DNA from: Fusobacterium sp. IOR10
GTDB lineage: Bacteria; Fusobacteriota; Fusobacteriia; Fusobacteriales; Fusobacteriaceae
Reading direction: 5' to 3'
DNA: 60,006 bases
Assembly: GCF_010367435.1 (NCBI RefSeq)
Contig: NZ_WJWY01000012.1
Span: forward strand, 1 to 60,006
Under the pieces are notes generated by a model that was not told the origin of the DNA, did not search any database, and saw only the letters and a list, made by a program, of their open reading frames with translations. The position numbers and the translations under genes are program-made. Positions 25,826 to 28,987 of the stretch are shown piece after piece. Position 1 is the stretch's first letter; every line of letters starts with the position of its first letter.

Positions 25826-28800
25826 TTAAACATTATTTTTGTATTGAGTTAATTCCTCAGGAATTTTATTTTCCAGTCTCAAAAAAATTTTATGATTAAA
25901 CTTCGATCTATGTCCATCTTTAGTTGAATGGAGTATTACAGTGGATATTTCATCAACGTGAAGATCTCCTAAATTAAAATAAGAGGTATTACCATAACCT
26001 AGATGCGGAAATTTAGCACAAATAAATAATTTATATCCATTTTTTATTAAAGTTATTTTTTCTTCAGCTTTTTCCTTACTAGAGGATTCTTGAGTCATAT
26101 ATACAATTCTTTTTTTGTTATCAATATAGTTATTATGAAAGGTATCTTTTTTACTGATGTTAATAATACAATAAAATCTTTTTTGAATGTGATCTATTCT
26201 TTCTCCAACAGCATTCATATAACAATCATTTGCATTTTTATTGAAAAGGAATTCTCCTTTATTAACTAACTCAAAGGGTTTCATTTTATAAGACTTCCTT
26301 TTTGATAGCTCACAGAATAAATCAATATGTTCTAGAAAAAGGCTATAGGCATTTTTTCTTTTTAATTCAATTATTATTTCATTTATTAAAGATAATCCTT
26401 TTTCATATTTAAAAATATCTATAAAATTATTTCCCTTTTTAAAGTAATCACTGTTAATAGCAGTTTTTTTCCCGTTTATTTTTTTAGGAATTAAAGTTTC
26501 TATAAGGGTTCTATTAAAAGTAATATTTCCTTTTAATAGAGAGATGTATTCTTTTAACGTTTCTTGATCGTATCCTCTAAAGGTAAATTGAGTAATTAGT
26601 CCAAAAAATTTATCTAAAAATTTATCATCTTTTGAGATATTATATTTTTTAATATAATATTCCATAAAAGGGTCATAAAAATTTTTACACAGCAATTGTA
26701 AAAGATTAAGCTCTTTAAAATTAGGATCCTTATATAGATCAGAAAGTGAAGGAATAATTTTAAATCTGTATAGTTCATTTTTAAATTTTTCTTTTAATTT
26801 TGTTTCCACTTTAAAGTTATTGGATATTGACTTAATAATATTTTCAATAGCTTTTTCTTCTATAATAACATTTATAAATTGAGAAACTGATTGAAAACCT
26901 TCATTAGCTTCTTTAAACAATACTCTTTTGTCAGCTGTTGAATTTCCAGTTAAAACTTCAGCAATGGAATAATTATTATTGGAATTTCCAATAATATCAA
27001 AGACAGTAACATATTTATGTGGATCTTCTGTTTTTCTAAGCCCTCTTCCTAATTGTTGTAAATATATAATAGATGAAGTGGTGTTTCTAATCATAAAAAT
27101 AACATTTATTTCAGGAAGATCAATCCCTTCATTAAATTGATTAACCACACATAAAAGTTTTAAAGGATTAGTATCATCTTTTAAATTTTTTATATAAATT
27201 TCTGTTTCTTCTCTTGAAGAATGTTCGCTGGTAATAGCTTTAGATTTTATTTCTAAATTATTGAAAGTATTAGCTATTTCTTTAGCTTCTGAAATATTAG
27301 AACAAAAAACAATTCCCTTTAATTTCTTACCAAAATATCCTTTTTCAATTAATTGCTTTTTCATAAATTTTCCTAATTCAGAATAATTAAATTTTTCATT
27401 AGTTTCCAATAGCTTGTTTTCAAGGTTTAGTCCATAATAAGTAAAAGGGCAAACCAATTGGTGATTCATAGCATCGAGCAATCTAATTTCATATGGAACT
27501 GTATATTCAAAAATTTCAAATAAAAATTTAGGATCTTTTGTTCTTTCTGGAGTTGCTGTAATTCCAAGGGTAAATTTAGGATTAAAATATTTTATAAGTG
27601 AATGATAGTGAGTATCTTCTCCAATTTTATGAGCTTCATCATAAATAATATAATCAAAGTATTCTTTGGAATATTTTTTATAAAGATGATTATAAGCTGT
27701 TTTATCAGTGGTAAAAATAATATGACTATCTTTAATTTTTTCTATGTTCAAAGAATTTAATTCAAGCAAATTCTTATTTGGAAAAACTTTTTTATAGGTT
27801 TCATAGGCACTTGAAAGGATTAGACGATTATGAACTAAAAATAATACTTTTTTTGCCTTTGTTTGTTTTACATCAAATGCAGAAAGATAAGTTTTACCAG
27901 TACCAGTGGCAGCGATAATAAGGCCTTTATTTGAATATTCTCGATAGCTTTCTAGTTTTGAAAGAGCTTTTTCTTGCATATAATTAGGAGTAATTTTATG
28001 TAAGGAAAAAACTTCAGATATTTTTTTATCTAGACTTTTTTTTTCATAAAACATTTTAGAATATTTCTCTATGAAAGTTTTAGTAATAAACTGTGAACAT
28101 CTATCATTCCAAAGATCATTAAAAATTTTGTGATATTCCTCAACAAGTGCTCCATTATTACTAGTGTTTATTTCCACTACCATTTCATGAGCTAATCCAA
28201 AAGCTCTAGCAGAAATATTAGAACTTCCTATAATAATTTTACTTTCATTGGGTTTTTCACCAAAATAAGCCTTTAAATGAAAACCCTTATTATTTAAAGT
28301 TGGAGAATAAATTTTAGCTTGAAGAGGTAATTCCAAGAGCTTTTTTAAGGATCTAGGATCACTGACCATTCCTTCTGTTGTAACTAATATTCTACTTTTA
28401 CTATCTAATTTTTCTAAATCTTTATAAATAAGTGAAAGTCCTGACCATACTACATAGCTTACTGCTATATCAACTCTTTTTGAAGATTTAAGAAGTTCTA
28501 TAACTTTGTCTTTTATATTTTTAGTATTTGAATTAATTACTAAACATGGATTATAGGTAAATGATTCTATTGATTTATTAAAAAGTGATTTGTTCACAGC
28601 ATTTCTATTAATTAATTCTTCAACAATTGGAATATCAGCTTCAGCCCAGTCTAAGAAAGGAAGTTCTTCTAAATTTAGCCACTTTGAATCTAAATGTTCA
28701 AGTAATTCTATTTTTTGAAAATCAATTTCACATAAATATGAATGCATAATAATTGTAAAGGTTTCATATTCATGTTCTACAGTTTTAAAAAATTCTCCAA

Positions 28801-28987
28801 TTTTTATATTTAAGTTTAATTCTTCAAAAAGTTCTCTAGCTAAGGCTTCTTTTTGTCCTTCTCCACTTTCTATTTTTCCACCTGGAAATTCCCATTTCTT
28901 TCCCAAAGGACCTGAATTTTTTCTTTGAGCACAAAAGTATTTATCTTTATATTTTAATATTGCTGCAACAACTTCTATTTTCTCCAT
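25826..28987 (-). CDS. NUDIX-PLD nuclease-SF2 helicase-DUF3427 fusion protein
   Basis: One 1053-residue protein joins four modules. Residues 1-125 are a MutT/NUDIX domain with the box G37-x5-E43-x7-R51-E52-L-x-E55-E56. Residues about 140-300 are a phospholipase-D-type nuclease domain (HKD family) with His237-x-Lys239 and GSSN at 254-257. Residues about 335-700 are an SF2 helicase with Walker A AATGTGKT (359-366), DEAH (450-453), ITATP and the motif VI region QQLGRGLRK. The remainder (about 700-1053) resembles the DUF3427 tail of COG1061-type helicases, including GYGNTSYFNLGDL. The PLD-helicase-DUF3427 order is known in bacteria; the NUDIX head is the unusual part. It is a single gene with AGGAG before the start. 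A DNA repair or anti-phage role is inference. Confidence 0.85.
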   Translation of the reverse strand: MEKIEVVAAILKYKDKYFCAQRKNSGPLGKKWEFPGGKIESGEGQKEALARELFEELNLNIKIGEFFKTVEHEYETFTIIMHSYLCEIDFQKIELLEHLDSKWLNLEELPFLDWAEADIPIVEELINRNAVNKSLFNKSIESFTYNPCLVINSNTKNIKDKVIELLKSSKRVDIAVSYVVWSGLSLIYKDLEKLDSKSRILVTTEGMVSDPRSLKKLLELPLQAKIYSPTLNNKGFHLKAYFGEKPNESKIIIGSSNISARAFGLAHEMVVEINTSNNGALVEEYHKIFNDLWNDRCSQFITKTFIEKYSKMFYEKKSLDKKISEVFSLHKITPNYMQEKALSKLESYREYSNKGLIIAATGTGKTYLSAFDVKQTKAKKVLFLVHNRLILSSAYETYKKVFPNKNLLELNSLNIEKIKDSHIIFTTDKTAYNHLYKKYSKEYFDYIIYDEAHKIGEDTHYHSLIKYFNPKFTLGITATPERTKDPKFLFEIFEYTVPYEIRLLDAMNHQLVCPFTYYGLNLENKLLETNEKFNYSELGKFMKKQLIEKGYFGKKLKGIVFCSNISEAKEIANTFNNLEIKSKAITSEHSSREETEIYIKNLKDDTNPLKLLCVVNQFNEGIDLPEINVIFMIRNTTSSIIYLQQLGRGLRKTEDPHKYVTVFDIIGNSNNNYSIAEVLTGNSTADKRVLFKEANEGFQSVSQFINVIIEEKAIENIIKSISNNFKVETKLKEKFKNELYRFKIIPSLSDLYKDPNFKELNLLQLLCKNFYDPFMEYYIKKYNISKDDKFLDKFFGLITQFTFRGYDQETLKEYISLLKGNITFNRTLIETLIPKKINGKKTAINSDYFKKGNNFIDIFKYEKGLSLINEIIIELKRKNAYSLFLEHIDLFCELSKRKSYKMKPFELVNKGEFLFNKNANDCYMNAVGERIDHIQKRFYCIINISKKDTFHNNYIDNKKRIVYMTQESSSKEKAEEKITLIKNGYKLFICAKFPHLGYGNTSYFNLGDLHVDEISTVILHSTKDGHRSKFNHKIFLRLENKIPEELTQYKNNV

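What the first reader, a model, noticed from the sequence alone, without database searches (positions are those of the whole stretch)
25826..28987. NUDIX-PLD-helicase-DUF3427 single-protein system
A nucleotide-pyrophosphatase-like domain with a near-complete NUDIX box is fused to a PLD nuclease, a DEAH-type helicase with all main motifs, and a DUF3427-like tail. PLD plus SF2 helicase combinations occur in defence islands (for example DISARM components), and NUDIX domains can act on modified or signalling nucleotides. One protein that can recognise a nucleotide, unwind and cut nucleic acid could be a stand-alone anti-phage or repair machine. Neighbours do not form an obvious defence island, so function is open. 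It is my best candidate for an undescribed system.
Basis: partly seen in the sequence, partly recalled or inferred. Interest (0 to 1): 0.7.

Follow-up and report, generated by a model that had tools for sequence, protein, structure and literature searches.

The report
Nudix-fused SauUSI-type modified-DNA restriction enzyme
This bacterial gene joins a SauUSI-like enzyme, which cuts foreign DNA carrying methylated or hydroxymethylated cytosine, to a domain whose best-studied relative destroys the matching modified nucleotides, and most SauUSI genes sampled have that second enzyme as the gene next door.

Summary
The reading frame and the domain order Nudix - PLD nuclease - SF2 helicase are real. 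The tail misses Pfam's DUF3427 model, but its predicted fold is SRA, the modified-cytosine reader. [quoted passage not shown]

The new part is the Nudix domain. A scan with the restriction core alone gave 80 loci from bacteria and archaea; 67 have a Nudix gene within 400 bp, in three gene arrangements. S. aureus SauUSI has one (identical to PDB 5X1X). Background is 3 Nudix genes in 490 kb of flank. The closest characterised Nudix enzyme, B. fragilis 3GWY, hydrolyses 5-methyl- and 5-hydroxymethyl-dCTP at kcat/Km above 4x10^6 M-1 s-1; those are the bases SauUSI attacks in DNA. The same Nudix family is fused to, or adjacent to, unrelated HNH-type methyl-directed nucleases and is fused to Vsr.

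Most likely the Nudix arm removes modified dCTPs so they cannot enter host DNA and trigger self-cutting. That step is inferred. I found only uninterpreted mentions of the co-localisation in the literature.

The parts
25826..28987 (-). whole gene, 1053 aa: Nudix-PLD-SF2-coupler-SRA fusion
   Evidence: 80% identical fused homologue in G004
28604..28987 (-). Nudix domain (residues 1-128), PDC-S07 / 5-methyl-dCTPase-like
   Evidence: Pfam NUDIX_4, PADLOC PDC-S07, best PDB match 3GWY E 1.3e-32
28811..28879 (-). Nudix box GX5EX7REXXEE (residues 37-59), catalytic Glu 52/55/56
   Evidence: intact in 86 of 86 SauUSI-paired Nudix proteins
28109..28501 (-). PLD-family nuclease domain (residues 163-293)
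   Evidence: Pfam PLDc_2; alignment with SauUSI 7CLG
28256..28279 (-). PLD catalytic motif H237-x-K239-x4-E244
   Evidence: same HxKx4E motif as SauUSI 119-126; H and K invariant in A1
26918..27997 (-). SF2 helicase/translocase (residues 331-690)
   Evidence: Pfam ResIII, DEAD, Helicase_C; 7CLG Z 27 over 330-1052
27890..27910 (-). Walker A, TGTGKT with K365
   Evidence: invariant in A1
27629..27640 (-). DEAH box, D450-E451-A452-H453
   Evidence: D, E and H invariant in A1
26294..26917 (-). helical coupler region (residues 691-898)
   Evidence: AF2 model of 690-1053, SauUSI 7CLG Z 13.8 over the coupler and TRD
25835..26293 (-). SRA-fold target recognition domain (residues about 899-1051), sequence-divergent
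   Evidence: structural matches are SauUSI and then SRA domains: SUVH5 Z 9.6, AspBHI 9.2, LpnPI 9.2, MspJI 9.0; no DUF3427 hit

Best explanation
This is a SauUSI-family type IV restriction enzyme carrying its usual partner, a Nudix pyrophosphohydrolase, as an N-terminal domain. The SRA domain finds 5-methyl- or 5-hydroxymethyl-cytosine in incoming DNA, the SF2 motor translocates, and paired PLD domains cut (inferred from SauUSI homology). The Nudix domain hydrolyses 5-methyl-dCTP and 5-hydroxymethyl-dCTP to the monophosphate (inferred from 3GWY and NudG). The likely reason for the pairing is that shredded modified DNA, or a phage's own modified dNTP pool, yields modified dCTP that a host polymerase could insert into the chromosome, where the enzyme would cut it. 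The Nudix arm keeps self DNA free of the mark. Shown by computation: architecture, intact active-site motifs, family membership of both halves, and conserved pairing. Inferred: substrates in this protein, prevention of self-cutting, and anti-phage effect.
For: Residues 130-919 match SauUSI 7CLG at 2.7e-86 with the PLD and SF2 catalytic residues conserved. The tail is predicted to be SRA. SauUSI cuts 5mC and 5hmC DNA (PMC7913695; PMC3874153). The closest characterised Nudix, 3GWY, has kcat/Km of 4.8e6 for 5-Me-dCTP and 4.4e6 for 5-hydroxymethyl-dCTP, with low activity on canonical NTPs (PMC5158307), and falls among SauUSI-paired Nudix proteins in the tree (weakly resolved). E. coli NudG prefers 5-Me-dCTP over CTP. 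Pairing: 67 of 80 loci fetched with the core only, in arrangements that need at least 33 changes on the core tree. In 8 of 8 genomes the best genome-wide hit of 3GWY is the Nudix beside SauUSI (7) or about 7 kb away (1). S. aureus SauUSI has a Nudix overlapping its 5' end, identical to PDB 5X1X. Generality: HNH(mREase_IV)-Nudix fusion, Nudix overlapping HNH mREase_IV genes, Nudix beside MrcB_N plus MazG-like, Nudix-Vsr fusion.
Against: No experiment on this protein or on any paired SauUSI Nudix was found. McrBC also reads modified cytosine but had no Nudix neighbour in 14 loci, so sanitation is not needed by every type IV enzyme. In Fusobacteriota only 16 of 68 core ORFs have the Nudix fused or within 400 bp, and the orthologue L085 lacks one within the stretch held, so it is not essential. 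The window's target-recognition domain is too divergent for sequence methods, so its exact target base is unknown; the SRA model was guided by canonical SauUSI sequences. Of 13 3GWY-like Nudix genes in Bacteroidales, two sit beside a SauUSI gene. The genomic neighbourhood of 3GWY itself could not be reached.
Confidence: 0.58

Rival explanations
1. The Nudix arm is offensive: it drains the hydroxymethyl- or methyl-dCTP pool that hmC- or mC-using phages make, starving their replication, while the restriction arm cuts the modified DNA already present.
For: 3GWY hydrolyses 5-hydroxymethyl-dCTP as well as 5-methyl-dCTP. The domain belongs to PADLOC's defence-candidate family PDC-S07. A 2025 review notes that the 5hmdCTP pool of T-even phages could be monitored by the host (PMC12707154).
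Against: SauUSI also acts against methylated plasmid DNA and horizontal transfer, where there is no modified dNTP pool to drain. Nudix partners occur with nucleases in many phyla where hmC phages are not known (own knowledge). It is not exclusive with sanitation.
Confidence: 0.2
2. The Nudix domain is a sensor or regulator: binding or hydrolysis of a nucleotide gates the nuclease or motor allosterically.
For: It is covalently fused here with almost no linker, and many separate pairs overlap or abut.
Against: The catalytic Nudix box is intact in 86 of 86 paired proteins, which points to turnover rather than sensing. Separate genes occur up- or downstream, on either strand when downstream, without a fixed order. 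SauUSI is active in vitro and in an E. coli clone as a single polypeptide (PMC3874153).
Confidence: 0.12
3. Ordinary house-cleaning (8-oxo-dGTP, 5-OH-dCTP, CTP) or repair function, with the Nudix gene near SauUSI only because defence islands collect genes.
For: MutT-like family; annotations often read MutT or 8-oxo-dGTP diphosphatase.
Against: 3 Nudix genes in 490 kb of surrounding flank against 67 of 80 at the SauUSI gene itself. No Nudix at McrC loci or at reader-less PLD-helicase loci. 3GWY prefers 5-methylated over 5-hydroxy dCTP about 50-fold.
Confidence: 0.07

Closest known systems
[quoted passage not shown]
   Same: PLD nuclease with HxKx4E, SF2 motor, helical coupler, SRA reader in the same order; residues 130-919 match at 2.7e-86
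   Different: SauUSI has no Nudix domain in the chain (it has a separate overlapping Nudix gene); the window's SRA domain has diverged beyond DUF3427
B. fragilis Q5LBB1 / PDB 3GWY and E. coli NudG, 5-methyl-dCTP pyrophosphohydrolases
   Same: Nudix box, D118 shared by both; W114 shared with 3GWY; best PDB sequence match
   Different: stand-alone enzymes; NudG is a more distant relative lacking the conserved Trp114
PDC-S07 (PADLOC phage-defence candidate, single gene)
   Same: the Nudix domain hits it at 4.8e-47 and all paired Nudix proteins tested hit it
   Different: listed as an isolated candidate without mechanism; co-location with RM type IV in S. suis reported as 23/23 without interpretation (PMC12813430)
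HNH-type methyl-directed nucleases with PDC-S07 Nudix (Paenibacillus, Priestia plasmids)
   Same: same Nudix family fused or overlapping with a predicted modification-dependent nuclease
   Different: unrelated nuclease fold, no SF2 motor

Membership tests
SauUSI-type type IV restriction enzyme | PLD nuclease domain with HxKx4E motif | tested here: met
   PLDc_2, H237/K239/E244, H and K invariant across 12 homologues
SauUSI-type type IV restriction enzyme | SF2 helicase-like ATPase following the nuclease | tested here: met
   ResIII/DEAD/Helicase_C, Walker A and DEAH invariant, 7CLG Z 27
SauUSI-type type IV restriction enzyme | C-terminal SRA-fold reader (target recognition domain) | tested here: met
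   AF2 model of 690-1053 (mean pLDDT 70) matches SauUSI Z 13.8 and SRA domains Z up to 9.6; caveat: alignment guided by SauUSI homologues. The Pfam DUF3427 sequence model, a label for canonical members rather than a functional criterion, does not match (profile-profile E 0.068)
SauUSI-type type IV restriction enzyme | ATP-dependent cleavage of 5mC/5hmC DNA | not testable with these tools
   needs purified protein
Pfam DUF3427 (PF11907) | sequence profile match in the tail | tested here: not met
   no hit at E up to 10; canonical relatives hit at 3e-82
5-methyl-dCTP / 5-hydroxymethyl-dCTP pyrophosphohydrolase (3GWY, NudG) | complete catalytic Nudix box | tested here: met
5-methyl-dCTP / 5-hydroxymethyl-dCTP pyrophosphohydrolase (3GWY, NudG) | closest to characterised modified-dCTPases rather than to 8-oxo-dGTPases | tested here: met
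   3GWY 1.3e-32, NudG 1.3e-17, E. coli MutT 1.9e-10; 3GWY groups with SauUSI-paired Nudix proteins (moderate support)
5-methyl-dCTP / 5-hydroxymethyl-dCTP pyrophosphohydrolase (3GWY, NudG) | hydrolysis of modified dCTP | not testable with these tools
   needs enzyme assay
PDC-S07 (PADLOC) | profile match | tested here: met
   PDLC04899 4.8e-47, residues 1-128
DISARM | drmA/drmB and methyltransferase neighbours | tested here: not met
   flanking genes are metabolic or regulatory: RpiR/SIS, DUF6282, TetR, FMN reductase, HAD

The most novel reading that the evidence does not exclude
Restriction of modified DNA is commonly coupled to destruction of the matching modified nucleotide. One Nudix family (PDC-S07), sometimes with a MazG-like enzyme, pairs or fuses with several unrelated modification-dependent nucleases so that the modified base is removed from both DNA and the precursor pool; the window gene is the single-chain form of this two-arm system.
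Probability: 0.45. Interest if true: 0.8.

Novelty: new variant of a known kind. Interest (0 to 1): 0.66.

Why it matters
SauUSI is the main barrier to gene transfer into S. aureus and has been studied as a lone enzyme. If its neighbouring Nudix enzyme clears modified dCTP, type IV restriction has a self-protection or offence arm that has been overlooked, and a listed but unexplained defence candidate (PDC-S07) gets a biochemical role. It also suggests how cells without a protective methylase avoid cutting themselves when modified bases leak into their nucleotide pool. The prediction is directly testable, with 3GWY and 5X1X already crystallised.

Tried and rejected
DISARM or another multi-gene system: no supporting neighbours. 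Housekeeping gene at a conserved locus: present in 2 of 7 congeneric genomes, flanks vary. The first TRD HMM was badly aligned (587 columns) and was replaced. Search for a substitute sanitiser beside Nudix-less SauUSI genes: the neighbour tally gave none, only an RNase_T-type exonuclease in one lineage. Genomic context of B. fragilis 3GWY: not sampled in 393 Bacteroidales genomes. Viral contigs gave few SauUSI-like genes; three of the loci inspected also carry a Nudix gene near the core. Literature for an explanation of the pairing: only a figure legend (PMC7641849) and a co-location statistic (PMC12813430).

Full report
Observation. The ORF at 25826-28987 (-) encodes 1053 aa without a stop. 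Pfam finds Nudix (7-123), PLDc_2 (163-293) and SF2 helicase (331-651) domains. The tail does not match DUF3427 at any threshold, although canonical relatives do. The fusion is real: G004, a congeneric species, has the same single chain at 80% identity, and dN/dS between the two is 0.25 in the Nudix part and 0.10-0.25 elsewhere.

What the large part is. Residues 131-778 hit PADLOC mREase_IV at 5e-87 and residues 130-919 hit SauUSI (7CLG) at 2.7e-86. SauUSI consists of a PLD nuclease (HxKx4E), an SF2 ATPase, a helical coupler and an SRA-fold target domain, and cuts S-5mC-N-G-S sites with 5mC or 5hmC (PMC7913695; PMC3874153). The window has the same nuclease and motor motifs. By sequence its last 360 residues are no more like canonical SauUSI tails than shuffles are. 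An AlphaFold2 model of residues 690-1053 (mean pLDDT 70) matches SauUSI (Z 13.8), and the next 47 rows are SRA-containing chains: SUVH5, SUVH6, AspBHI, LpnPI, MspJI, AbaSI, PvuRts1I, UHRF1 and others. The model was built with SauUSI homologues in the alignment, so it supports but does not independently prove the fold. The exact target base of this divergent reader is open.

What the Nudix part is. It hits PADLOC's candidate PDC-S07 (4.8e-47) and, among solved structures, B. fragilis 3GWY first (1.3e-32), the S. aureus protein 5X1X second, and E. coli NudG third. 3GWY was assayed on 74 substrates: its best are 5-Me-CTP, 5-Me-dCTP (4.8e6 M-1 s-1) and 5-hydroxymethyl-dCTP (4.4e6), with 5-OH-dCTP 50-fold lower and canonical NTPs much lower (PMC5158307). 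NudG also prefers 5-Me-dCTP. These are the bases that SauUSI attacks in DNA. All 86 SauUSI-paired Nudix domains have the full catalytic box and the Asp at position 118; Trp114 is in 98% of them and in 3GWY and 5X1X.

The pairing. I scanned the genome collection with an alignment of the restriction core only, the Nudix left out of the query. Of 80 loci, 67 have a Nudix gene within 400 bp of the core: about 33 upstream and 18 downstream on the same strand, and 17 downstream on the opposite strand (one locus has both). The hosts include Bacillota, Bacteroidota, methanogens, a Bathyarchaeote, a spirochaete, an actinomycete and a Vibrio. Beyond 1 kb the same loci hold 3 Nudix genes in 490 kb. On a tree of 152 cores the arrangement label needs at least 33 changes, so the partnership survives repeated reordering. 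In 8 of 8 genomes tested, the best genome-wide hit of 3GWY is the Nudix beside SauUSI (7) or about 7 kb away (1). The S. aureus locus has a Nudix overlapping the SauUSI start, and that protein is identical over 123 residues to PDB 5X1X.

Controls. Fifteen PLD-SF2 relatives that lack the C-terminal reader have no Nudix nearby (Fisher 3e-10 against the wide set, 0.03 against Fusobacteriota computed with 16 of 66). Fourteen McrC loci in the same phylum have none. The own genome has 5 Nudix ORFs in 2.03 Mb.

The fusion. In the relative G055 the two parts are separate genes: the Nudix stop codon is followed by one base and then the core's ATG. In the window and in G004 they are joined without a linker. 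The fusion is therefore most simply a recent step inside a lineage that already had the pair; the next orthologue (G012) has no Nudix within the stretch held.

Beyond SauUSI. The same Nudix family occurs with other modification-linked nucleases on plasmids: an HNH(mREase_IV)-Nudix fusion in Paenibacillus polymyxa, Nudix genes overlapping an HNH mREase_IV gene in Priestia, Nudix beside a MrcB_N protein and a MazG-like gene, Nudix beside an HNH gene in Sphingomonas, and a Nudix-Vsr fusion in Collinsella. Of ten non-SauUSI plasmid contexts that I opened (not a random sample), five are HNH-type or MrcB_N-type, one is Vsr, one has a GmrSD-type gene about 1.3 kb away, and three are something else. 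MazG-like genes also sit behind Nudix-SauUSI in two lactobacilli; the MazG-like enzyme DCTPP1 is a known 5-methyl-dCTPase (PMC10742078).

Mechanism. The best reading is a two-arm system: the SRA-PLD-SF2 part destroys DNA carrying modified cytosine, and the Nudix part destroys the modified dCTP so that it does not enter host DNA and provoke self-cutting. SauUSI shreds its substrate, which would release modified nucleotides. Offensive use against hmC phages is the main rival and the two can coexist. The substrate preference of this Nudix domain, the self-protection effect and any phage phenotype are untested.

Weak points. McrBC lacks the partner (in this phylum), many Fusobacteriota SauUSI genes lack it (16 of 68 core ORFs have it), and of 13 3GWY-like Nudix genes in Bacteroidales two lie beside SauUSI. 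The Nudix tree is poorly resolved. The neighbourhood of 3GWY itself could not be read.

Known and new. The restriction enzyme kind is known. The co-location has been mentioned twice without interpretation: a figure legend calling the small genes beside SauUSI homologues MutT homologues in Streptococcus (PMC7641849), and PDC-S07 with RM type IV co-located in 23 of 23 S. suis cases (PMC12813430). I found no paper linking SauUSI to modified-dCTP hydrolysis, within an open-access library only.

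Noticed in passing
L002 (own genome, contig C15:44268-46497): A second, broken SauUSI-like gene without Nudix: the PLD-helicase frame stops after 286 aa and continues in another frame, near the contig end.
   Followed up: partly
L003, L009, L103 (G004 contig C5): The 80% identical fused homologue is present twice, 65 kb apart, as 100% identical inverted copies including flanks; a perfect palindrome or an assembly artefact.
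   Followed up: partly
L073-L083: In one Fusobacteriota family SauUSI genes lack a Nudix but nine have a conserved RNase_T/DEDDh exonuclease gene directly upstream; a possible different partner.
   Followed up: partly
L293:4998-5987: Nudix (PDC-S07) fused to a Vsr mismatch endonuclease in Collinsella aerofaciens.
   Followed up: partly
L353:1421-2884: HNH methyl-directed nuclease fused to a C-terminal PDC-S07 Nudix domain on a Paenibacillus polymyxa plasmid.
   Followed up: partly
L350:2507-4488: Priestia aryabhattai plasmid: Nudix, MrcB_N (DUF3578) protein and MazG-like gene in a row.
   Followed up: partly
L309-L323: A roughly 790-aa PLD-SF2 subfamily without the SRA tail in at least 14 Fusobacteriota genomes; function unknown, no Nudix partner.
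   Followed up: partly
L285:1086-3662, L288:6994-9570: PDC-S07-like Nudix gene directly after a Schlafen-group-3-type helicase gene in Bacteroidales (Pfam run on L285; L288 has the same gene sizes and order).
   Followed up: no
L011-L015: Orphan Nudix genes in the window's genus fall inside the SauUSI-paired Nudix clade although their genomes' SauUSI genes lie elsewhere.
   Followed up: no
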